Source of the DNA: a virus
IMG/VR virus record: IMGVR_UViG_3300036846_001124
Span: 1-39,427 of that record
DNA: 39,427 nt
Direction: 5' to 3' (one strand)
Shown: one piece after another, positions 3,643-31,403 of the stretch
How positions within the stretch are numbered: the stretch's first letter is position 1
Layout of the letters: each line of letters starts with the position of its first letter
Notes under the pieces: generated by a model
The model's input: the letters and a program-made list of their open reading frames with translations, nothing else
Databases searched by the model: none
Told to the model about the DNA's origin: nothing
Translations under genes and position numbers: made by a program

Positions 3643-4257
3643 ATGAAGAAACTACTCTTGGCGACCACGGCGGTCTTGGCATTTGCGACAAGCAATGCCA
3701 TGGCAGACGTTACAGTCCTCGATCAACTGAGCGGAACGGGCGACAACGTCGTCGCCGATTCCTCGAGCACCAACAGTGCTCTAGGTCATCTCAACGGCCA
3801 GCATCTTGATGTGGTTCGTTACACGAACCTATCGACCGGCTTTACGTTCGCTGCCAACGGCAACGACATAAAGATCGGCAACACCAATATGGTGACCGAC
3901 CAAGTGTTCGACCCGACCAACACCTTCGTAGTTGGTACCACGACGGAGGTGTTCAGTTTGACGGGCACCGGCGACGTGCATCTGGCCGTGAACGCCACGG
4001 ACGGAACGTTCAACTTTGATCTCGGCACCATCGGCAATGGCCAGTCCGGGTTCACGGTGAACGCCATCAACGGTGAAGTGATCAACTCGCTAACGCTCAC
4101 CGACTCCACCGGAGGTATACTTAGCTTCGAACACAACCGCATCGAAACGGCTGTGGCGGCTGTACCTGAGCCGGCGACCTGGGGCATGATGCTTCTAGGC
4201 TTTATCGGCCTAGGGTTTGCCTTCAAGAATAAGCGTCGCAAGGTAAGCTTCGCGTAG
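3643..4257 (+). CDS. PEP-CTERM sorting-domain protein 1
   Basis: 204 residues, ATG after ACGGAGG. Residues 1-21 are a Sec signal (ending AMADV). The body is rich in Thr, Asn, Gly and beta strands, typical of secreted surface or matrix proteins. The C-terminus has VPEPATWGMMLLGFIGLG then a hydrophobic segment and basic tail (KNKRRK): the complete PEP-CTERM signal, which in bacteria is recognised by exosortase after export. The phage would therefore depend on the host's exosortase. Followed at once by a second PEP-CTERM gene. Host-derived surface protein is the likely origin (inference). Confidence 0.9.
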   Translation: MKKLLLATTAVLAFATSNAMADVTVLDQLSGTGDNVVADSSSTNSALGHLNGQHLDVVRYTNLSTGFTFAANGNDIKIGNTNMVTDQVFDPTNTFVVGTTTEVFSLTGTGDVHLAVNATDGTFNFDLGTIGNGQSGFTVNAINGEVINSLTLTDSTGGILSFEHNRIETAVAAVPEPATWGMMLLGFIGLGFAFKNKRRKVSFA

Positions 4258-4295
4258 ATACAAACTTGGTCAGAGGTTGGCCCACCAAGAACGGG

Positions 4296-4313
4296 AGGGT
4301 GCCACGGCACCCT
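4296..4313 (+). other. Hairpin between the two PEP-CTERM genes
   Basis: Seven-base-pair stem AGGGTGC/GCACCCT with a four-base loop, in the 95-base gap between the genes, followed by TCTACC and no T-run. It may be an attenuator or mRNA-stability element. Confidence 0.35.
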
Positions 4314-4352
4314 TCTACCTATCCCAATCCCCACTACTATGGTGAGCTCAAG

Positions 4353-4997
4353 ATGAAAAAGCTCTTGCTAGCGAGCGTATTCGCTTTGGCGGTAGGTCCC
4401 GCACTTGCGGATGCAATCAACTTGACGGCGACTGTTGACGGAGTAGTGGCAGGCTCTGCCTCAAGCCCCGATGGCAGCTTGACTGTCACCAACCAGTCGT
4501 TCGGCGTATTCAATCTGAACTCGCTGAGCATCAATTCGGAGACGTTCCTGGCGCCTCCGGGCATTTTGTCCAGCAACACGCTGGACGTGGATCAAACCGC
4601 GACTGGCACTCACACGCTGGTCCTGGACATCACTGCAACCGGCCTCGCTGGGCCGAATGCCCTGCAAGACTTCCTGTCGTCATTTTCGGTGAGTGGCCAG
4701 ACGGCGGGATGGTCTGTGATTGAACGTACCACCATCAATGGCGTCACGCTTGCCACCACTCCGCTATTCACCGGAGTGTCTGACTCAGCGTTCTCCACCA
4801 ACGCTGCATTCGCAGGTACGCTGTTCACTGCCGATGAGCACTACACGATCACTTCGGTAGGGGAAGGCTCGTTCAACGGCGGTATTGATATCAGTGCCGC
4901 AGTGCCAGAGCCAGCGACCTGGGGCATGATGTTGCTCGGCTTTGTCGGGCTTGCGTTCATGTTCCGGCAGCAGCGCCGCAAGGTGTCGTTCGCGTAA
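4353..4997 (+). CDS. PEP-CTERM sorting-domain protein 2
   Basis: 214 residues from ATG at 4353; the frame is open 87 bases further upstream but the signal peptide MKKLLLASVFALAVGPALA fixes this start. The middle is a beta-rich, Thr/Ser-rich secreted domain. The C-terminus VPEPATWGMMLLGFVGLAF plus RQQRRKVSFA is a full PEP-CTERM signal, and the last residues RRKVSFA are identical to those of the upstream gene, showing that the two sorting tails share recent ancestry though their bodies differ. A strong terminator follows. Confidence 0.9.
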   Translation: MKKLLLASVFALAVGPALADAINLTATVDGVVAGSASSPDGSLTVTNQSFGVFNLNSLSINSETFLAPPGILSSNTLDVDQTATGTHTLVLDITATGLAGPNALQDFLSSFSVSGQTAGWSVIERTTINGVTLATTPLFTGVSDSAFSTNAAFAGTLFTADEHYTITSVGEGSFNGGIDISAAVPEPATWGMMLLGFVGLAFMFRQQRRKVSFA

Positions 4998-5020
4998 GGA
5001 CTCATGGCATAAAAGAGGGG

Positions 5021-5050
5021 AAGGGGCCGGATGAAAGTCCGGCCCTTTTT
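5021..5050 (+). terminator. Intrinsic terminator after PEP-CTERM operon
   Basis: Stem GGGCCGGA/TCCGGCCC extended by AAG/TTT pairs, six-base loop, then five Ts. Ends the PEP-CTERM transcription unit just before the Tas promoter. Confidence 0.9.
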
Positions 5051-5058
5051 ATTGGAAG

Positions 5059-5087
5059 TTGCAATCTTGCAAGTAATGTTGTAAAGT
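5059..5087 (+). promoter_or_regulatory. Promoter of the Tas-array locus, TTGCAA-N17-TAAAGT
   Basis: TTGCAA at 5059-5064, 17 bases, TAAAGT at 5082-5087. It lies between the upstream terminator and the AGGAGG ribosome site of the Tas-like gene, so it is the natural start of transcription for the gene and, with no terminator seen between, for the array. Confidence 0.7.
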
Positions 5088-5111
5088 AAATTTGCACACT
5101 AGGAGGGCTCG

Positions 5112-6128
5112 ATGGCAGAACTTGATCTAATTAGAATAGCAGTCAAAGGCTGTTATGATCTACAAATGCTGCGAATGCAGACCGGCTTGCGGCTTGCATC
5201 GAATTTTCGTGCTAAACTGAAAAAGCACAAAGATGACATTAAGGAAACCGAGGATGGTGAACTTAGTGCGGTTGCTCAGAGCATCCTGGACGAGCTCCGT
5301 GAATCTTACAAAATGCTGACGAGCGGCATTGCCAGGAACAGGACCTTACCAGGTAAAGAAGGATTCATAGGCAACCCATTGATTTCTACGTATGCCGAAC
5401 TGGTCATGGTCCACCAATTTACAGTATTGGAACGAGAAGAGAAAGGACACTTCCTTCAGTTAGAAACCTTGTTGGCAGATGTTCCTATCTTTACAGAGTA
5501 TCTGACTAATGTGAGGGGTATCGGAGCTGCGATGGCCGGTGTGCTGGTCACCAAGTTTGATCCACAAAAAGCACGGCATGTTTCTAGCTTCTGGAAGCTT
5601 GCCGGGTTGGATGTAGTGATTGTGGACTGTGGTGGCTGTGAAGGCAGGGGTGAAGATGCTGCCGGTAATCTGTGTCAGTATTGCAAAGGTTCTGGCATTT
5701 GGGGTGAGGGCAGATCACGTAAGGAAAGCCACCTTGTTGAGCGCACGTATACGAATAAGGATGGTGAGGAAGCCACGCGCATGGGCTTGACCTATGACCC
5801 GTGGCTGAAAACCAAGCTGTTCGTGCTAGCCGGGTCATTCATGAGGTCCAAGAGCCCTTGGGCTGATGTGTACCGAAACTATAAGAATCGTATCAGCTCA
5901 GATGTGGCCCGTGATAAGGTTAGTGTCGGCGAGTGGAAACTTCGCAATAAACGTGGTGAGATTGTGGAGCACTTGTGGACACCTGGGCGCATCGATAACA
6001 GTGCCAAGCGCTACATGATCAAGATGTTCCTCATCGAGTTCTGGACCAAGTGGCGGACCATGGAAGGTCTACCGGCACCACCTCCATACCATGAAGGTAT
6101 GCTTGGTCACCGGCATGCAGCGGAGTAA
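5112..6128 (+). CDS. Tas-like Nop/IS110-related RNA-guided protein, nuclease-free (TasA type)
   Basis: 338 residues after AGGAGG. A helical N-terminus (RIAVKGCYDLQMLRMQTGLRL) leads to a coiled region, then VRGIG (134-138) with HVSSFWKLAGL (156-166), the helix-hairpin-helix signature shared by IS110-type transposases and the Nop-like fold. The C-terminal block AKRYMIKMFLIEFW...WRTMEGLP...PPPY...LGHR (298-334) is typical of stand-alone relatives often annotated as transposase. An insert with C173/C176 and C188/C191 is a zinc knuckle. No RuvC DEDD or HNH residues are visible, so it should bind and not cut. In published TIGR-Tas systems Nop-domain Tas proteins bind 36-nt tigRNAs from dual-spacer arrays; here such an array lies 335 bases downstream. 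Assignment to Tas rests on family recognition plus this neighbour. Confidence 0.8.
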   Translation: MAELDLIRIAVKGCYDLQMLRMQTGLRLASNFRAKLKKHKDDIKETEDGELSAVAQSILDELRESYKMLTSGIARNRTLPGKEGFIGNPLISTYAELVMVHQFTVLEREEKGHFLQLETLLADVPIFTEYLTNVRGIGAAMAGVLVTKFDPQKARHVSSFWKLAGLDVVIVDCGGCEGRGEDAAGNLCQYCKGSGIWGEGRSRKESHLVERTYTNKDGEEATRMGLTYDPWLKTKLFVLAGSFMRSKSPWADVYRNYKNRISSDVARDKVSVGEWKLRNKRGEIVEHLWTPGRIDNSAKRYMIKMFLIEFWTKWRTMEGLPAPPPYHEGMLGHRHAAE

Positions 6129-6131
6129 GCG

Positions 6132-6314
6132 ATGGATGATGGCGAAAAACGTGCTGCTGCTCGAGCAATCTATGAGGAATACGACTACATGGGTGCTGGA
6201 AACAGGACAGCGTGGGGCAATCTACCTGCACACGAGCAACAGACCTATTTGCAGTTAGCAGCAGCCGCTCTACGCGCCGTTCAGCGACACAGACGCGGTG
6301 AGTTCAATGGGTGA
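6132..6314 (+). CDS. Small hypothetical protein between Tas-like gene and array (60 aa)
   Basis: Starts four bases after the Tas-like stop, with GGAGTAAGCG acting as ribosome site, so it is in the same operon. Two helical parts: residues 1-20 (GEKRAAARAIYEEYDY) and 36-56 (QQTYLQLAAAALRAVQRHRR), separated by a WGNLP turn. This helix-W-LP-helix pattern is seen in short phage proteins of unknown function. Its position suggests, but does not prove, a link with the array. Confidence 0.55.
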   Translation: MDDGEKRAAARAIYEEYDYMGAGNRTAWGNLPAHEQQTYLQLAAAALRAVQRHRRGEFNG

Positions 6315-6462
6315 TATGCAATGATCATGGAGTAACGCCAATCCAGACATTACCCCCTCTCGTGCGTGAAGCACACCAATTGCTGCTGATCACACAGCAG
6401 ACTGTCAAATAGCGAGAAACCCAGAAAGCAGGGGCTGGAGAACCCGGTCACTGCACACCCTA
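6315..6462 (+). other. Array leader with degenerate first repeat
   Basis: No ORF is supported in this 148-base gap. It holds a small hairpin (CTGCTG at 6383-6388, CAGCAG at 6395-6400, loop ATCACA) and, from 6411, a degraded unit: AGCGAG runs straight into AAACCCA, and AGAACCCGG at 6439 resembles a loop repeat, 52 bases before the first intact edge repeat. No terminator is seen, so the array can be read from the upstream promoter at 5059. Confidence 0.6.
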
Positions 6463-7929
6463 AGCGAGCCACTCTTTCATAGAAACCCACGCTGACGAAG
6501 CGAGCCACTGTCACTCAGTAATCCAAGGCGCGAAAGCGAGCCAAAGCCGTAAAGAAATCCAGAAGCTGAAAGCGAGCCAAAGCCGTTAAGAAATCCATGG
6601 TGCAATAGCGAGCCAGATAAGGTAAGAAATCCACAATGGAGCAGCGAGCCACAGTTATCTAGAAATCCAAGTTTGTCAAGCGAGCCACCTTCTAAGAGCG
6701 AGCCAACTCAATCTAAAAATCCAGGCTGAGGAAGCGAGCCATAGCCGACAAAGAAATCCACACAGTGCTAGCGAGCCATACTTCGGTAGAAACCCGTGTA
6801 GAGAAAGCGAGCCATGGTTCATCAGAAACCCATCGTTCCAATAGCGAGCCAGAACGTCCTAGTAATCCAGGTTTAACAAGCGAGCCAAAATATATCAGTC
6901 ACCCGATATCGTTCAAGCGAGCCATCGAATACAGAAGCCCGTAAAGGTAGAGCGAGCCACGCCCGTTCAGAAATCCCTCACCATCGAGCGAGTCAAATCA
7001 CCACAGAAATCCATGCATGATAAGCGAGCCATACAGGAACAGGACACCAAATTCCACAAGCGAGCCAACCTGAGCCAGAAAACCGAGCATCATGAGCGAG
7101 CCAAGTCGCCAAGAGACCCAATGAAGGAAAGCGAGCCAATGATCATTAGATATCCATGTGCTATAAGCGAGCCATAACGAGCCAGAAATCCATTACGTTG
7201 AAGCGAGCCAGGGTTATAAAGACATCCAGAGAGCCGAAGCGAGCCAAAATACATTAGGAATCCGATGTGCCGAAGCGAGCCATCATTTACTAGAAACCCA
7301 AGCAAGCAAAAGCGAGCCATGAAGGAAAAGTAACCCATATGTGCAAAGCGAGCCAGACTTCGAAAGAAACCCAAAGTCGATCAGCGAGCCACGAACGAAA
7401 AGTGACCCAGAGAAGACCAGCGAGCCAACGTGAGCCAGAAAGCCAAGCATCATTAGCGAGCCAAGGTCTTTTAGAAATCCATAAAATGAAAGCGAGCCAC
7501 GATCCCAGAAATCCGTAAATGCAAAGCGAGCCACTCGCGACTAGACACCCAAGATGAAGAAGCGAGCCAAAGCAATACAGAAACCCAATTACTGGAAGCG
7601 AGCCAATGTTTACGAGAAACCCAGAATGCCACAGCGAGCCAACATCAATTAGTAATCCTGACGGCGTAAGCGAGCCACTTAAATCTAGGCACCCACGAAC
7701 GATCAGCGAGCCGGAAAACTGAAGAAACCCACATCCCGACAGCGAGCCAGCTACTATCAGATACCCATGGTCCGAAAGCGAGCCAAGCTTGTCTAGAAAC
7801 CCAGAAGTTTTAAGCGAGCCAGGACCTACTAGGAATCCAGAAACGACGAGCGAGCCAGCGAAAAACAGATACCCATGAAGAAAGAGCGAGCCAGCAGCAA
7901 TTAGAAATCCATGACTAAAAAGCGAGCCA
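6463..7929 (+). repeat. TIGR-like dual-spacer guide RNA array (42 edge repeats)
   Basis: 42 copies of AGCGAGCCA, 40 exact (variants AGCGAGTCA at 6987, AGCGAGCCG at 7705). Of 41 intervals, 33 are exactly 36 bases, four are 37, two 35, one 34 and one 18. Within each unit a second, looser 9-mer (consensus AGAAAYCCA) sits in the middle, so the plan is edge repeat, 9-base spacer A, loop repeat, 9-base spacer B: 40 dual-spacer units plus one half unit, about 81 spacers, almost all unique. This equals the published TIGR layout, where the array is processed to 36-nt tigRNAs whose two spacers address the two DNA strands. CRISPR is excluded by the short repeats and spacers. The likely strand is plus, as for the upstream Tas-like gene; which nine bases bound the mature RNA cannot be told from sequence. 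Confidence 0.9.
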
Positions 7930-8180
7930 GCCAATATCTTGTCAACCGGGTACCTACCGGGTACAATGTTATCAAGTGCGACGAGGATTTTAACTTTATG
8001 GAAGTGTATGCTGTAGTAGAGGAGCGTGGTAAGTGGTTCTGCTCATGCCCCAATACGATGGCGGCTGAATGCAGGCATATAAAAATGATAGACATCTTTA
8101 AGAAGAAAAGGGCAATAGACAAGGGCATGTTCTTTTGTTATGATACCAAAGAATGGACTAAAGTTAAGGGATTTAACTAG
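7911..8180 (+). CDS. SWIM zinc-finger protein starting inside the array
   Basis: 89 residues. FCSCPNTMAAECRHIKMI (about residues 43-60) is a SWIM motif, CxC followed by CxH, preceded by the usual strands (YLVNRVPTGYNVIK, YAVVEERGKW). SWIM fingers bind zinc and are found in proteins that touch DNA or partner proteins. The only in-frame start giving the full fold is the ATG at 7911, in the last spacer, so residues 4-6 come from the final edge repeat. No good ribosome site precedes it; an internal ATG at 7998 would remove the first strand. The stop lies in an 11-base-pair hairpin (8170-8196). A partner role with the array is inference from position. Confidence 0.7.
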   Translation: MTKKRASQYLVNRVPTGYNVIKCDEDFNFMEVYAVVEERGKWFCSCPNTMAAECRHIKMIDIFKKKRAIDKGMFFCYDTKEWTKVKGFN

Positions 8181-10065: not shown

Positions 10066-11751
10066 ATGACATCCGACAGTACATTTACCACGTTGTCGGG
10101 GGGATTGCAAGCAAAAATTATTAATGATTTAATGGATTTGTTCCGGAGTAATAGCCGGGGATATGGAGTGGGGGAATTTCAGGGCGCAAGGTTTGACGAG
10201 GATAAGAATAAGTGGATTCCTGGACATGTGCGGTGGACCTGGGGCGAGACCAGCGAGCGCGAATGGCATGACCATTTAGCCGGTGTGAAGCTATTGGGTC
10301 AGGGAGTACTTTGCGACGATAATAAGGTCTGGTATGCCTGTTTAGATATTGATAGCTATGATATTGATTACCACGAGGAAATGGCCAAGATAAAGCGCAG
10401 CGGTCTACCGCTGGTGGTGTATCGGACGAAGAGTGGTGGATTGCGGATTGTCATATTTTTCAGTGAAGGAATAGATAGCGAGCTGGTTATACCAAGGATG
10501 CGAAGAGTCGCATCCTTATTGGGATATGCAGGCTGCGAAATCTTCCCTAAACAATCAAAATTGGATGTATCGAATGGCGATTGCCCATCATGGATCTATA
10601 TGCCGTATGGAGGAACGCATGACATGTTCCCGGAACAAGGTTGCATGAACGAGGGTGGTGGATTGATGGAATTGGAGGAGGGAATAGAGTACGCTAAAGA
10701 GAAAAGAATAACACAATCAGAGTTCGTAAAACTGTTTACCGCCGAGGAGCACGCAAAGGCTAATGGGAAGGCTAATGGCCGGAAACATCCGCGTGGGTCG
10801 TGGGTCCAGGAAGAGAGTTACGAGACAACCATAAACACGATGTTTTGGGATGGTCCACCTTGTCTGTGGACTATTTCACATGCAAAGTCCCATGAAATGC
10901 AAAATAATTTCTTATTCAATGTAGCCATGTTTCTTAGGAAAAAATATCCTGAGAATTGGGACAAGGCATTGGAGTGGGTCAATTATAATGTGCTTCAGCC
11001 GGTGGGTGATAGAGATAAGTTGAATAGTCTTATTAAACGTGAGCCCGATAAGAACTATTTGTGTCAACAAGAACCCATATGCTCGCATTGTATTTCCCAT
11101 ATGTGTCGTCGTCAGCCGTATGGCGTAGGAAATGACGGTACTGGAGTTGATTATCATGAACTAGCAATTACGATTATAGATAGGGAACCAAATATTTTCT
11201 TTGTGAGTATTGGTGACAAACGAATTCAATGCACATTTGATGAATTGTGGCATCAGCACAAATTTCAGGTCAAGTGTGGTGATCATGGTATTTCTGCCCC
11301 GCAGACAATGAAGAAAGTAGAGTGGGAAAATATTATACGGCAGAATACAGAGAAAGCGACGCATGCTCCACCGTCACGAGTGATACGAACCAATGCTGAT
11401 GAGCTTGATTTATTAGCCAGATATTTCGGTGCTTATCTTCCAAGTTATATGCGTGTTGGTGAAAAGGAAGATGATAAAGTCCGGGTAAGGGATACAGAAA
11501 GAAGAATTTACTTTAAAGAACAGAGATTGTTGGATTATTGCCGTGGATTATCAGGTGGTGGAAATCTAGCATTGTCCATGCGATGGTTTATTCACAATAA
11601 ATGTGATTATCATCAGCAGGGTCCTGGGCATCGTGGATGGTGGCGCAGTACGTATTCTATACAATACGAAATGTTTGATGAGGAAGAATTAGGGAAATGG
11701 TTTGGAACAAATAATGGTGCTCAAAGTAAACAGGAGGAGATTAATCCATGA
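10066..11751 (+). CDS. Archaeo-eukaryotic-type (AEP) DNA primase
   Basis: 561 residues. D94 and D96 in CLDIDSY form the metal-binding motif of AEP primases; YRTKSGGLRIVIFF (119-132) is the second motif, and EIFPKQSKL (158-166) plus WIYMPYGG the third region. In the family the second motif usually reads SGG-x-H; here the position is Arg127. Residues 333-347 (CQQEPICSHCISHMC) form a four-cysteine zinc site followed by PYGVG, as in viral and plasmid primases. The last 200 residues are unrecognised and may be a winged-helix or helicase-contact domain. It would lay primers for phage replication; no helicase is in this window. AGGAGG precedes the start. Confidence 0.8.
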   Translation: MTSDSTFTTLSGGLQAKIINDLMDLFRSNSRGYGVGEFQGARFDEDKNKWIPGHVRWTWGETSEREWHDHLAGVKLLGQGVLCDDNKVWYACLDIDSYDIDYHEEMAKIKRSGLPLVVYRTKSGGLRIVIFFSEGIDSELVIPRMRRVASLLGYAGCEIFPKQSKLDVSNGDCPSWIYMPYGGTHDMFPEQGCMNEGGGLMELEEGIEYAKEKRITQSEFVKLFTAEEHAKANGKANGRKHPRGSWVQEESYETTINTMFWDGPPCLWTISHAKSHEMQNNFLFNVAMFLRKKYPENWDKALEWVNYNVLQPVGDRDKLNSLIKREPDKNYLCQQEPICSHCISHMCRRQPYGVGNDGTGVDYHELAITIIDREPNIFFVSIGDKRIQCTFDELWHQHKFQVKCGDHGISAPQTMKKVEWENIIRQNTEKATHAPPSRVIRTNADELDLLARYFGAYLPSYMRVGEKEDDKVRVRDTERRIYFKEQRLLDYCRGLSGGGNLALSMRWFIHNKCDYHQQGPGHRGWWRSTYSIQYEMFDEEELGKWFGTNNGAQSKQEEINP

Positions 11752-11807: not shown

Positions 11808-11987
11808 ATGATCATGACAATAGAGATACAGGCCAAGCCAGAGCAAGTCGAACGTCTTATCAATATCTTGGAAAGAATTGCAGATACACTGGACAATATT
11901 CGTATGGATTTAGGTGAAATAATGCAAGATACAGGGGAAGGAAGAGGGAAGTTTGCTGTAAATGTCCGGAATATTGATCAGAACTGA
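11808..11987 (+). CDS. Small helical protein (59 aa)
   Basis: ATG at 11808 (or 11814 in the same frame) just after GGAGGAT. Residues 12-45 form an amphipathic helix with coiled-coil-like spacing (VERLINILERIADTLDNI). It overlaps the possible upstream start of the NusG-like gene. No family is recognised. Confidence 0.5.
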   Translation: MIMTIEIQAKPEQVERLINILERIADTLDNIRMDLGEIMQDTGEGRGKFAVNVRNIDQN

Positions 11988-12606
11988 CGTGAGACACATC
12001 CTATCAGGCGCTGTCGGCGGGATAACCGGTGAGTTGGTTAACACGCTTCGCTTGATCGAACGTCGCCATGGAGATGAGGCCATGACACTTGGAACTGAAG
12101 GTGAGCAATGTGCTCCACACTGGTCATTACTAAAGTTAAATCCTCAGAAGCAACGAGGTTATATGGAGTTATTGCAGGAACATTACCCTGGTATTGAAAG
12201 TTATTTTCCGGTATATAGCCGGGTAGTGAGACCACATGGGGTTCGAAAACCTAGGGAAGTAAAGAAACCTGTGTATCCTGGGTATGTATTTTTGCGTGTG
12301 AGTGACGGGGACTTAAGAGGCCCCGTCGCTTTACCGGTGAGTGCTAAATGGGTTCGGTTTGGTGGTAGAATAGAGGCAATACCGGGGTTCGTAATACAGA
12401 GATTACGAGGCTTGGAGCAGGCTAATGAATTGGTAAGGGAGGTCAAGTATGTTAATCCTTATGTTCCTGGGGTACGTGTACGAGTGCATCTGCCGGTGCA
12501 GGACATTATGGGGGTCGTCGTCAAATTGGTTCGTCATAATCGGGCTTTGGTGGATACGCCGTTGGGAAGGGCAACGGTCCAAGTGCACACTTTACAGATA
12601 CTTTAG
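11962..12606 (+). CDS. NusG/RfaH-like transcription elongation factor
   Basis: Up to 214 residues. From about residue 54 it reads WSLLKLNPQKQ, then FPVYSRVVRPH, KPVYPGYVFLR and KWVRFGG, the NGN domain of NusG/RfaH (RNA polymerase clamp binding); the C-terminal 55 residues (YVPGVRVRVHLPVQDIMGVV...) are a KOW domain. Phage or mobile-element NusG paralogues act as operon-specific antiterminators. The start is uncertain: ATG 11962 overlaps the previous gene, GTG 11989 follows its stop, and ATG 12082 has the best ribosome site (GAGATGAGG) and begins right at the NGN domain. The region just downstream carries repeated TGTAC hairpin-like elements that could be its targets (inference). Confidence 0.8.
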   Translation: MSGILIRTDVRHILSGAVGGITGELVNTLRLIERRHGDEAMTLGTEGEQCAPHWSLLKLNPQKQRGYMELLQEHYPGIESYFPVYSRVVRPHGVRKPREVKKPVYPGYVFLRVSDGDLRGPVALPVSAKWVRFGGRIEAIPGFVIQRLRGLEQANELVREVKYVNPYVPGVRVRVHLPVQDIMGVVVKLVRHNRALVDTPLGRATVQVHTLQIL

Positions 12607-16514: not shown

Positions 16515-16721
16515 TTATCTTCTACCCTTCGACGGACAAGCAATGTCGTCAGGGTAACGTTCACAGAAGTCCTGGCCCTGTTCAATGATATGCTTTCGCT
16601 CGGCATCCTTACTCATAGGTGCAACCTTTGGATCAGGGGACTGACCCTGTACACGAAAGGCATCGCTGGAACACCCGGCTAAAGCGATCGCTGCGATTAG
16701 AACGAGTGCCTGAATCGCCAT
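16515..16721 (-). CDS. Small lipoprotein (68 aa)
   Basis: Start at the second in-frame ATG, 16721, six bases after AGGAGG; an ATG at 16727 touches that ribosome site. Hydrophobic signal followed by lipobox IALAGC, so Cys17 would be lipidated and the protein anchored in the periplasm. The mature part has two further cysteines (DFCERYPDDIAC). It overlaps the end of the PEP-CTERM gene by 25 bases. Phage lipoproteins often act in superinfection exclusion or as spanin partners; neither is shown here. Confidence 0.7.
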   Translation of the reverse strand: MAIQALVLIAAIALAGCSSDAFRVQGQSPDPKVAPMSKDAERKHIIEQGQDFCERYPDDIACPSKGRR

Positions 16722-17032
16722 CGCCATCCTCCTAGCATTGCAAATCCGGTCAGCAGCATAGCCCAAGTCGCGGGTTCAGGCACAGCAGGCTGGACATAGG
16801 TTATGCTTGTAACCTGCCACCCGCCGGGGAAAACGCTGGTGCTATACCCGGTCGGCTCGAACGACACAGCATAGGGATCCGCCGGATCCATCGCCTCCGC
16901 AGCAAAGTATAGCGCCATTCCCGATGGCTCCCAAAAGGGATTCACGGTGATGTCGACGATGATGGCGATCGTATCGGCGCGTGCTGGCACGGTCACCAGC
17001 ATCAGCGCAGCGATGAGTAAGAGTTTTTTCAC
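16697..17032 (-). CDS. PEP-CTERM sorting-domain protein 3
   Basis: 111 residues, GTG start after AAGGA. Sec signal MKKLLLIAALMLVTVPARA, a short beta-rich body, then AVPEPATWAMLLTGFAMLGG and a basic tail (WRWRFRHSF): a full PEP-CTERM exosortase signal. The tail differs from those at 3643 and 4353 (WAMLLTGF against WGMMLLGF), so it was acquired or evolved separately. It sits in a leftward operon next to a lipoprotein gene. Confidence 0.85.
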   Translation of the reverse strand: MKKLLLIAALMLVTVPARADTIAIIVDITVNPFWEPSGMALYFAAEAMDPADPYAVSFEPTGYSTSVFPGGWQVTSITYVQPAVPEPATWAMLLTGFAMLGGWRWRFRHSF

Positions 17033-18714: not shown

Positions 18715-19125
18715 GTGCCACGTCCACACCCACACACCGGTAGTTCCACCGGAAGTGCGAAGCTCACGCATAGACCAGATCGTAGCTTACCATTGGCCCG
18801 CAAACCAGAAGCGGAAATCCTTGAGCCAGAACCCAGATACAATGACCCGGAACTGTCTCCACAGGATTTCTTACTTGCAGTGATGCACGACAAGCGGCTG
18901 CCGATGGCAGCACGCATTGATGCTGCGTCCAAAGTTTCTGTGTACATCCATCCCCGGTTAGCGCAGATCACGCAGGATGTGACGGCTGGTGTTACAATTC
19001 GCATTGAAGGTGGGCTTCCCCAATTACCGGGCACGAATATTATCATGCCAGAACACACGAAACACACGGTTACAGCCGAAACAAGCCAGAGTAAAGGCAA
19101 CGGCCACGATCCAGACTCTACTTAA
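18715..19125 (+). CDS. Terminase small subunit-like protein (136 aa)
   Basis: GTG start (weak ribosome site). Residues about 45-85 (LSPQDFLLAVMHDKRLPMAARIDAASKVSVYIHPRLAQ) match a helical motif very common in phage proteins encoded just before the large terminase: helix, MxD, LP, R.DAA, YxHP+L. The N-terminus is basic and Pro-rich, fit for DNA binding. It precedes the large terminase by about 780 bases, with two small leftward genes between. A convergent 57-residue ORF overlaps its end by eight bases. Confidence 0.55.
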   Translation: MPRPHPHTGSSTGSAKLTHRPDRSLPLARKPEAEILEPEPRYNDPELSPQDFLLAVMHDKRLPMAARIDAASKVSVYIHPRLAQITQDVTAGVTIRIEGGLPQLPGTNIIMPEHTKHTVTAETSQSKGNGHDPDST

Positions 19126-19291
19126 CCTCCTGAAAGATTTCTTCCCATTCAGTTTGAAGCATATACGGCCAGTTCTCTTTAATTCTGGCCCATATGGCAT
19201 CTGCGTTTGGCTCCATACCCCTATCGCGCCGCCGCTTGACCCACATCTTCATCACTGACACTTTACGCTTATCGGCTATTTTATCGACCAT
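19118..19291 (-). CDS. Small basic protein (57 aa)
   Basis: Leftward ORF overlapping the end of the 19281 gene by 11 bases and the end of the rightward 18715 gene by eight. Basic first half (KRKVSVMKMWVKRRRDRG), then an amphipathic helical half (IWARIKENWPYMLQTEWEEIF). The coupling to the membrane-protein gene supports it. No family is recognised. Confidence 0.5.
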   Translation of the reverse strand: MVDKIADKRKVSVMKMWVKRRRDRGMEPNADAIWARIKENWPYMLQTEWEEIFQEVK

Positions 19292-19649
19292 TGGGTGTGT
19301 AGACTCCGCGTGCGTTTGGGATTAAGGTCACCTCCAACTCAGCCTGGGTTGGTTCTCCTGTTGCCAGCTCAGGCTCCTTTCTTCTAAACCGCAGGCCAAT
19401 CTTGGTAATTTCTCCAACACCGACCAACACCGCAATCAAATAATAGATTGGCATATAGTCAGCCCACGGTTCATCCAGAAACAAAACACCGATTACATTG
19501 AGTGTAAATAAACCGAAACACAGCCAAATTCCTGCTCGGATAAATTTCCCCTGCGCGATATTGCACAGGGCCATGATCGGTGAGCCAATCAGCCACCCGC
19601 CTAGCATTATCGCGATGCCAATTGGAACAAGTAATATCAGTGCAGTCAC
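19281..19649 (-). CDS. Membrane protein (122 aa)
   Basis: GTG start after AAAGGAG. Three hydrophobic segments: residues 2-25 (ILLVPIGIAIMLGGWLIG), 40-57 (GIWLCFGLFTLNVIGVLF) and 66-84 (MPIYYLIAVLVGVGEI), then a basic soluble tail. It has its own strong promoter. It could be an exclusion protein or a holin-like protein; nothing decides. Confidence 0.65.
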   Translation of the reverse strand: MTALILLVPIGIAIMLGGWLIGSPIMALCNIAQGKFIRAGIWLCFGLFTLNVIGVLFLDEPWADYMPIYYLIAVLVGVGEITKIGLRFRRKEPELATGEPTQAELEVTLIPNARGVYTPNGR

Positions 19650-29968: not shown

Positions 29969-30093
29969 TGGCAATGACACCTTGCTCACCGGTTAACAAG
30001 CCAGGTCTTTCTGGTAAAGGCCGACCACTCCCGAAGAAGCCTTTGCCGAAATCACCTGGATCTTGTTCGAGTCCCTCTTTGGGCCGTAGGTAA
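29965..30093 (+). CDS. Small basic Pro/Lys-rich protein (42 aa)
   Basis: ATGA overlap with the membrane-protein stop, and its own stop shares a base with the next ATG. Composition is Pro, Lys, Ser and Gly (GLSGKGRPLPKKPLPKSPG), with two cysteines. It is short but held in a chain of exact overlaps, which is why it is listed. Confidence 0.45.
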   Translation: MMAMTPCSPVNKPGLSGKGRPLPKKPLPKSPGSCSSPSLGRR

Positions 30094-31403
30094 TGGCATC
30101 TGTACTTGATGCTTTAAACTCAAAATCCCAACTTGGCGCTTCCCTTGAGCAAGGTGTTCGTACTCTATCGGCGGATCAAACTTTATCTTTCTCTTTGTAT
30201 CGAAAATTTATTTTTCCGTTAGACGGTATGAATTATTGGATTAAGGTTCCGTCAAGTCCTGCCCCTGTTTCTACGGCTGGTATCATACCAACATCTGGAT
30301 TGGTGTCTGCAACAGCTAAAGCTGGAGAGGCTATTCAGATTTCACCAGGAGGACCGCTTGCAGCCTTCATTATTGGCGGCACTATATATAATCCGCTTGA
30401 TGCTGTTGATCAAGGACTTGAAACAGCAGAGTCACTATTTGTGGATTTTACTGGTCCTGCATATTCACATGTATCAGGAAGTTCTATCGAACTTCAACCA
30501 GGAGAAAATGTAGATATTCCTGAAAATTGTGTAAATGGAGCGTGGGTTTGTGCCGCGAGTGGTAGTCATCAATTTACGTGCGTGTTGCAAAGATCTAATC
30601 CCACTGTGGAAATGGCAACCGATGTTGAAGTAAGTGGCTCTTTTCACTATGCATCTACAACACTTCAAGAGGAAGATGCAACAGTTGACACAAACGAGGT
30701 TATTTTCACTTCTCTCTCAGAAATTCAGCACTTTAATCGAATCGGCCCTGATTATATGTATATCTGTCATTATCGTGATATTACTTTTGCTTTTGACTCT
30801 AGAGCTAGATTATATGAACAAGCTGATCTCTATCATTATCGCGGGCATGCGCTGAAGAGTAAGCACCAAACTCAAATTATTGATGACCCGTCGCAGTTTA
30901 ATCCAACGTTAGTTGTTTCAAACTCACTTCCTATTTGGCTCTATATGCAAATCTACGTGCCACCGTATCCAGGATTTACGTGTCCGTTTATTTTGTATCC
31001 TTCTTTTCTGGTAGATGATAACTTGCCTCCTCCGTTTGGGGCTGTGCATTGTGAGGATACTCGAGTATTGATGATGAACTCGTACCTTGGTCCTCACTTG
31101 CAGTCCAGCCAATTGTGCAGAGAAAAGGTTAGAGTTCATACTTATGGTGTAGATAATGAAACTATTATTTCATTTCTCAATTTTGTAGCGCAGTATTCGC
31201 GCGATTGGATGTATTTGGGGTTAGTGGATAGTCCTGCAATTCGTGATCAAAAGGATGTGCAGCCGGAATTTAAGACTTTGGCACAACGGAAGCTTATCGA
31301 ATTTGATATTAATTACAATCAGGCTGTGAGCCGAAACTTGGCTCGCCAGTTAGTTGAACATGCGAGGGTGCAGTTTATCCCACAGTGGTTGAATGGAGAC
31401 TAA
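30093..31403 (+). CDS. Structural protein of unknown function (436 aa)
   Basis: Long soluble protein, beta-rich N-terminal half and alpha/beta C-terminal half, no signal. Notable parts: GMNYWIKVPSS, FHYASTTLQEEDATVDTNEVIF (about 185), LVVSNSLPIWLYMQIYVPPYPG and SYLGPHLQ. A DUF-type virion protein encoded between neck and sheath in related contractile phages is the best reading, but I do not recognise the family. Confidence 0.55.
   Translation: MASVLDALNSKSQLGASLEQGVRTLSADQTLSFSLYRKFIFPLDGMNYWIKVPSSPAPVSTAGIIPTSGLVSATAKAGEAIQISPGGPLAAFIIGGTIYNPLDAVDQGLETAESLFVDFTGPAYSHVSGSSIELQPGENVDIPENCVNGAWVCAASGSHQFTCVLQRSNPTVEMATDVEVSGSFHYASTTLQEEDATVDTNEVIFTSLSEIQHFNRIGPDYMYICHYRDITFAFDSRARLYEQADLYHYRGHALKSKHQTQIIDDPSQFNPTLVVSNSLPIWLYMQIYVPPYPGFTCPFILYPSFLVDDNLPPPFGAVHCEDTRVLMMNSYLGPHLQSSQLCREKVRVHTYGVDNETIISFLNFVAQYSRDWMYLGLVDSPAIRDQKDVQPEFKTLAQRKLIEFDINYNQAVSRNLARQLVEHARVQFIPQWLNGD

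What the first reader, a model, noticed from the sequence alone, without database searches (positions are those of the whole stretch)
5059..7929. TIGR-Tas-like RNA-guided locus in a phage genome
Seen: one promoter, a 338-residue protein with the VRGIG/HVSSFWKLAGL helix-hairpin-helix and RRY-FL-W-WR-EGLP-LGHR blocks, then an array of 40 dual-spacer 36-base units (9-base repeat, 9-base spacer, 9-base repeat, 9-base spacer). Known: published TIGR-Tas systems have Nop-domain Tas proteins related to IS110 transposases and arrays giving 36-nt RNAs with two 9-nt spacers addressing both DNA strands. Inference: this is a member of that class, of the nuclease-free type, so its effect should be DNA binding or silencing of host or rival-phage genes and not cleavage. 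About 81 spacers is a rich target list.
Basis: partly seen in the sequence, partly recalled or inferred. Interest (0 to 1): 0.95.

Follow-up and report, generated by a model that had tools for sequence, protein, structure and literature searches.

The report
Nuclease-free TIGR-TasA system in phage
A soil-type phage carries a recently described RNA-guided DNA-binding system: one small nuclease-free protein and a bank of 40 two-part guide RNAs, the longest such bank among the 70 related loci with arrays seen here; the system is of a known kind, but what its guides target is still unknown.

Summary
Window 5112-6128 encodes a 338-aa protein; 6463-7929 holds 42 edge repeats (AGCGAGCCA), giving 40 full dual-spacer units plus one half unit. 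The protein passes NCBI's curated TIGR-Tas cutoff (115.8 vs 100 bits). Its model matches solved TasH (Z 18.4) and TasR (Z 17.1), starting where their nuclease domains end. Of 93 loci with a relative of the protein, 70 carry the same kind of array, always on the tas strand.

New details: an insert with two CxxC pairs found in no close relative; a 4.6-kb accessory cassette whose empty site is seen in a syntenic phage; the longest array in the set; and a statistical sign that arrays change by copying half units: near-identical spacers within an array keep their slot (25 of 28, p 1.4e-5) but usually have a different partner.

Targets remain unresolved: none in the phage's own record, only isolated exact matches in related phages. 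Binding without cleavage is inferred from the family, not shown.

The parts
5019..5050 (+). Rho-independent terminator of the upstream PEP-CTERM gene; isolates tas transcription
   Evidence: RNA fold -24.1 kcal/mol, z -4.86, ending in a U run. The consensus scan did not list it.
5079..5091 (+). Promoter-like motif TTGTAAAGTAAAT shared with other phage genes
   Evidence: 13 matches in the window at up to 2 mismatches vs 3.2 expected, 0 of 100 shuffles as many; sites lie upstream of several genes.
5112..6128 (+). tasA: solo Nop-domain TIGR-associated protein, 338 aa
   Evidence: NF052498 TIGR_Tas 115.8 bits, cutoff 100; PDB TasH E 4.7e-8; model vs TasH Z 18.4 and TasR Z 17.1.
5628..5684 (+). Insert with CxxC (C173, C176) and CxxC (C188, C191), zinc-knuckle-like, between the AGLD motif and the next beta-hairpin
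   Evidence: Among 93 loci only the window and the archaeal locus L107 have paired CxxC at this place. Low model confidence there.
6132..6314 (+). Small ORF, 60 aa, unknown
   Evidence: ORF list; no Pfam or PHROG match.
6411..6462 (+). Degenerate leading units (AGCGAGAAACCCA ... AGAACCCG)
   Evidence: Direct reading of the sequence.
6463..7929 (+). TIGR array: edge repeat AGCGAGCCA, loop repeat AGAAAYCCA, 40 full dual-spacer units plus a half unit at 6679
   Evidence: Unit parsing; loop positions 1, 7 and 8 are invariant in 40 units and position 2 in 39 of 40, other positions vary.
7911..8180 (+). SWIM-like CxCx7CxH small protein; its start codon and first codons lie in the last array unit
   Evidence: Sequence; homologs in tas-less relatives, 70.8% identical in G043; empty-site comparison.

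Best explanation
This is a phage-borne TIGR-TasA system. One transcript should run from the motif at 5079 through tasA into the array. By analogy with characterised family members, the array RNA is cut within the edge repeats into about 36-nt tigRNAs, each with two 9-nt spacers. A TasA dimer holds each tigRNA by its box D (AG) and box C (CCA) motifs. The complex binds double-stranded DNA by pairing spacer A with one strand and spacer B with the other, opening and bending the DNA. Without a nuclease domain it cannot cut, so it most likely blocks transcription or replication at the bound site. The likeliest use is interference with competing phages or other mobile elements in the same host. Shown here: family membership, solo-Nop architecture, array anatomy, strand linkage, and the cassette's presence in this phage and absence from a syntenic relative. 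Inferred: processing, DNA binding, silencing. Guess: the class of target.
For: Curated family score above cutoff. Profile matches to TasR E 2.9e-23 and TasH E 3.5e-21. Fold match starting at TasH residue 65 and TasR residue 110, so no room for HNH or RuvC. 40-unit array next to the gene on the same strand. 70 of 93 loci with a Tas relative have such arrays, all 103 arrays on the tas strand. Published reference phage CGphi29 (TasH) has an array with the identical edge repeat AGCGAGCCA (L019). Edge pair 3-6 covaries: C-G 650, T-G 36, T-A 32, C-A 21. Published TasA, TasR and TasH all copurify with 36-nt RNAs (PMC12045711). No match to its own record at up to one mismatch per half and gap 0-3, as expected for guides against foreign DNA.
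Against: No RNA or binding data here. Targets not identified: three exact opposite-strand spacer-pair matches in 3.3 Mb of held DNA, most of it related phages, against 0.39 expected from re-paired spacers. One of the three is in the phage's own PEP-CTERM gene with a 12-bp gap. The two close-spaced ones use different spacer orders, 0.44 Mb of further DNA gave none, and 8-nt matching showed no excess. The usual terminator after the array is missing. The CxxC insert could alter function.
Confidence: 0.9

Rival explanations
1. The same TIGR-TasA machine regulates genes of the phage or its host (for instance surface proteins) and is not aimed at rival elements.
For: The locus sits next to two PEP-CTERM surface-protein genes. 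Unit 7059 and its near-copy 7419 resemble the phage's own PEP-CTERM coding motif: both spacers of 7059 match exactly, on opposite strands, at 4164-4193.
Against: The two half-matches are 12 bp apart, while published cleavage tolerates only 0-2 bp (PMC12045711). The near-copy 7419 does not match exactly. Other tas loci lack PEP-CTERM genes within the held flanks. No other self-match at gap 0-3.
Confidence: 0.25
2. TasA binding and bending of DNA helps integration, partition or packaging of the phage genome.
For: Suggested in the original paper because TasR bends DNA by about 180 degrees and some TasA genes lie beside parB-like genes (PMC12045711).
Against: No parB or integrase was recognised next to this locus in the family scans run. 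40 diverse guides and no self-match fit poorly with one structural site. The host genome was not searched.
Confidence: 0.08
3. A decayed IS110-type transposase beside an unrelated minisatellite.
For: Weak Pfam IS110 match (E 0.018); PHROG label 'transposase'.
Against: IS110 NCBIfam score 16.5 against a cutoff of 140, TIGR-Tas 115.8 against 100. Intact ORF. The same repeat type beside 70 of 93 relatives. No DEDD domain.
Confidence: 0.01

Closest known systems
TIGR-TasA (solo-Nop TIGR-Tas; Faure et al. 2025, PMC12045711)
   Same: Solo Nop protein, adjacent dual-repeat array, 9-nt spacers, 36-bp period, box C/D motifs in both repeats, phage host.
   Different: 40 units where 5-15 is usual; CxxC...CxxC insert; no terminator after the array; array end runs into the next gene.
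SpTIGR-TasH of Salicola phage CGphi29
   Same: Identical edge repeat AGCGAGCCA, loop repeat AGACAACCA (L019); 24% identity over 74% of the protein.
   Different: TasH has an N-terminal HNH nuclease and 16-nt total spacer length (PMC12045711); the window protein has no HNH.
IS110 family RNA-guided transposases (IS621)
   Same: Nop-like fold, Z 12.3.
   Different: IS110 has an N-terminal DEDD recombinase domain and a bridge RNA; the window protein has no such N-terminal domain and an array in place of a single guide RNA.
Box C/D snoRNP Nop5/Nop56
   Same: Nop fold, Z about 6-7; box C/D logic.
   Different: Works with L7Ae and fibrillarin on RNA methylation; similarity here too weak for membership.

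Membership tests
TIGR-Tas | Nop-domain Tas protein, by curated family model | tested here: met
   NF052498 115.8 bits, cutoff 100; all 16 aligned relatives match the model.
TIGR-Tas | Fold of Tas proteins | tested here: met
   AlphaFold2 model, pLDDT 81: TasH Z 18.4 (222 aligned, 3.1 A), TasR Z 17.1 (192 aligned, 2.8 A).
TIGR-Tas | Adjacent array of two alternating 8-12-nt repeats with about 9-nt spacers | tested here: met
   42 edge repeats, 40 full units; 73 of 80 spacers exactly 9 nt.
[quoted passage not shown]
   AG at the start and CCA at the end of both; loop A1, C7, C8 invariant and G2 39 of 40.
TIGR-Tas | Extra covarying base pair in the edge repeat | tested here: met
   Positions 3-6: C-G 650, T-G 36, T-A 32, C-A 21, across loci.
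TIGR-Tas | Processing into 36-nt tigRNAs bound by the protein | not testable with these tools
   Needs RNA sequencing.
TIGR-Tas | Dual-strand RNA-guided DNA binding | not testable with these tools
   Needs biochemistry; natural targets not identified.
TasA subgroup of TIGR-Tas | No N-terminal HNH or RuvC domain | tested here: met
   Model residue 1 or 2 aligns with TasH 65 and TasR 110; no nuclease match in Pfam.
IS110 transposase | Curated IS110 family score; N-terminal DEDD domain | tested here: not met
   16.5 bits against cutoff 140; the alignment to IS621 starts at residue 125 of IS621, leaving no N-terminal domain.
Box C/D snoRNP (Nop5) | Nop5 with L7Ae/fibrillarin partners and K-turn RNA | not tested
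   Only fold similarity seen (Z about 6-7); no Rfam match in the window.

The most novel reading that the evidence does not exclude
TIGR arrays are rebuilt by copying half units in register (edge-A-loop or loop-B-edge), so that new dual guides arise by recombining A and B spacers inside the array and not by fresh capture; the window's CxxC-bearing TasA is a zinc-binding variant working with the longest such array in this set.
Probability: 0.25. Interest if true: 0.65.

Novelty: new member of a known kind. Interest (0 to 1): 0.42.

Why it matters
How TIGR arrays arise and what TasA proteins do are stated as open questions in the founding paper. This locus gives a compact, clean test case: 40 guides, an empty-site relative, about 80 related phage records in the same collection, and a measurable sign that spacers within an array are copied slot by slot with changed partners. 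Two exact dual matches in related phages are candidate targets that can be tested directly in a binding assay.

Tried and rejected
Targets in the phage's own record: none at up to one mismatch per half and gap 0-3. Targets in 0.85 Mb around tas genes: the published geometry gave no more near-matches than three control geometries. Related phages: three exact 18-of-18 composites among 20 geometry-gap cells in 1.2 Mb, scanned with 234 units from 12 loci; only two of these are window units. For the 37 window units usable in the exact test, real pairs beat permuted pairs in 3.3 Mb (3 vs 0.39), but this was not reproduced in 0.44 Mb of new DNA or with 8-nt halves. A whole-collection scan for the unit 7347 composite gave 5 scattered hits, about chance by my estimate. 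PEP-CTERM genes as a general partner of tas: rejected, 1 of 91 loci, window only; homologous surface-protein genes of another sorting type lie near tas in G013 and G023. Terminator after the array: none. No plasmid carries a close relative; no PADLOC model matches. One search contained an arbitrary extra peptide typed by mistake; its result is ignored. The published supplementary table could not be read, so whether this exact locus is already listed is unknown.

Full report
What is there. The window is a 39,427-base virus record. At 5112-6128 (+) it encodes a 338-aa protein, followed on the same strand by an array of short alternating repeats. Parsing gives 42 edge repeats (40 exactly AGCGAGCCA), 40 complete units edge-A-loop-B and one half unit at 6679. 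Among the 80 spacers of full units 73 are exactly 9 nt. The loop repeat (consensus AGAAAYCCA) varies at positions 3-6 and 9, while A1, C7 and C8 are invariant and G2 is kept in 39 of 40. Tandem Repeats Finder sees only fragments because half of each unit is variable. A chain finder for AG....CCN sites in phase links 80 sites in the window and found no chain of five or more in mononucleotide shuffles of the sequences then held.

What it is. The protein scores 115.8 bits against NCBI's TIGR_Tas_endo model, above its curated cutoff of 100, and only 16.5 against the IS110 model with cutoff 140. By sequence it finds TasH (E 4.7e-8) and the solved TIGR-TasR chain 9mty (E 3.5e-5) in the Protein Data Bank; the family profile gives 3.5e-21 and 2.9e-23. 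An AlphaFold2 model (pLDDT 81) matches TasH at Z 18.4 and TasR at Z 17.1, IS621 at 12.3 and Nop5/Prp31 at about 6-7. In these alignments the first or second residue of the model falls on TasH residue 65 and TasR residue 110, so the protein starts where the HNH or RuvC domain ends. It is therefore the solo-Nop type, TasA. The defining array features published for TIGR (PMC12045711) are met: two alternating repeats, 9-nt spacers, box D (here AG) and box C (CCA) in both repeats.

Relatives. Two scans of viral contigs and one of genome contigs brought in relatives of the protein; with the window and two phage records this made 93 loci after removing repeats. 70 of these have an array of the same design, and all 103 arrays lie on the tas strand. 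The published reference, Salicola phage CGphi29 (locus L019), has the identical edge repeat AGCGAGCCA. Across the loci the edge-repeat positions 3 and 6 covary (C-G 650, T-G 36, T-A 32, C-A 21; T-A expected about 6 from the margins), as expected of the extra edge pair seen in the TasR structure. The window array is the longest of the set; the paper gives 5-15 units as usual.

Peculiar features. (a) Between the AGLD motif and the next beta-hairpin the protein has an insert with two CxxC pairs (C173, C176, C188, C191), absent from the 15 aligned relatives. Among 93 loci the only other paired CxxC at this place is in a Thermoprotei archaeon protein, L107, so the insert probably arose twice. That it binds zinc or lies in the DNA-separating wedge loop is inference; the model is poor there. 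(b) The locus is part of an accessory cassette. In the syntenic phage G043 the two flanking genes (CxxCxxCC protein and SWIM-like protein) are adjacent; in the window, two PEP-CTERM genes, tasA, a small ORF and the array (about 4.6 kb) lie between them. The last edge repeat lies inside the start of the SWIM-like gene. (c) A strong terminator (5019-5050, z -4.9) precedes tasA, which has its own promoter-like motif, shared with other phage genes. No terminator follows the array, so tasA, array and SWIM gene probably share a transcript (inference).

The phage. Capsid relatives include records of 75-79 kb. G013 (77,961 bp) has its tasA split over the record ends, so it is probably circular, and the window is likely about half a genome (inference). 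In the 43 records reached by capsid or primase similarity only one has a closely related tasA and three have a distant Tas: tas is accessory in this phage group.

Targets. The paper's 8-nt 3' overhang implies that a target reads A then the reverse complement of B, with a gap of 0-2 (my derivation). No such site exists in the phage's own record at up to one mismatch per half. In 3.3 Mb of held DNA, much of it from related phages, 37 usable window units give three exact opposite-strand pairs against 0.39 expected when A and B are re-paired between units. They are: unit 7347 in phage G017 (gap 3, in the homolog of window gene 30093-31403, at a place where the window protein differs); unit 7885 in G033 (gap 2, reverse order); and unit 7059 in the phage's own PEP-CTERM gene (gap 12). 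New DNA gave none, 8-nt halves gave no excess, and a scan of the whole viral collection for unit 7347 is about at chance. I treat these as candidates only.

How arrays change. Within arrays, spacers identical or one mismatch apart are far commoner than between arrays (139-fold and 8-fold). They keep their slot: 25 pairs A-A or B-B against 3 across slots (p 1.4e-5; also p 2.5e-4 or less on positions 1-8 or 2-8 with one mismatch allowed). In 17 of 22 unit pairs the other spacer differs at 5 or more positions. Since A and B are interchangeable in targeting (PMC12045711), independent capture from the same site should often swap slots; slot keeping with changed partners suggests copying or recombination of half units in register. 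The pairs come from about a dozen arrays and are not fully independent, so this is a lead, not a proof.

How it works, and how sure. Family identity: near certain. Processing to 36-nt guides and dual-strand DNA binding: very likely from characterised members, not shown here. Effect by blocking and not cutting: likely, since no nuclease domain is present. Aim at competing phages or other mobile elements: my preferred guess, about 60%. Verdict: a good new member of a known kind, with some details of interest to the field.

Noticed in passing
window 3643-4257, 4266-4997, 16697-17032 (-): Two phage genes for PEP-CTERM sorted surface proteins (Pfam PF07589) and a third ORF with a PEP-CTERM-like end, pointing to a Gram-negative host with an exosortase. 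Relatives G013 and G023 carry homologs with a VPGP-type ending near their Tas genes.
   Followed up: partly
window 4164-4193 and units 7059, 7419: Both spacers of unit 7059 match exactly, on opposite strands and 12 bp apart, the DNA coding the phage's own PEP-CTERM motif; unit 7419 is a near-copy.
   Followed up: partly
window, 13 sites incl. 1302, 2543, 3581, 5079, 8273, 8780, 14793, 19667: Repeated motif TTGTAAAGTAWAT upstream of genes on both strands, 13 vs 3.2 expected: probably a phage-specific promoter.
   Followed up: partly
L107:2021-3058: A Thermoprotei archaeon Tas protein has its own zinc-ribbon-like CPHC...CPRC at the same place as the window's insert, plus cysteines near the N-terminus.
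   Followed up: no
G010, G011, G023 (18924-19607): Three capsid relatives carry a very distant Tas-like protein of about 280 aa; whether it has an array of another type (for example stem-loop) was not tested.
   Followed up: no
L041 and L104: A viral contig and a Spirochaetes MAG contig share one near-identical dual-spacer unit (up to 2 mismatches per spacer).
   Followed up: no
window 10066-11751 and 11962-12606: Primase-like protein with weak similarity to the AEP-TOTE primase and PHROG primase, and a phage NusG-like protein.
   Followed up: no
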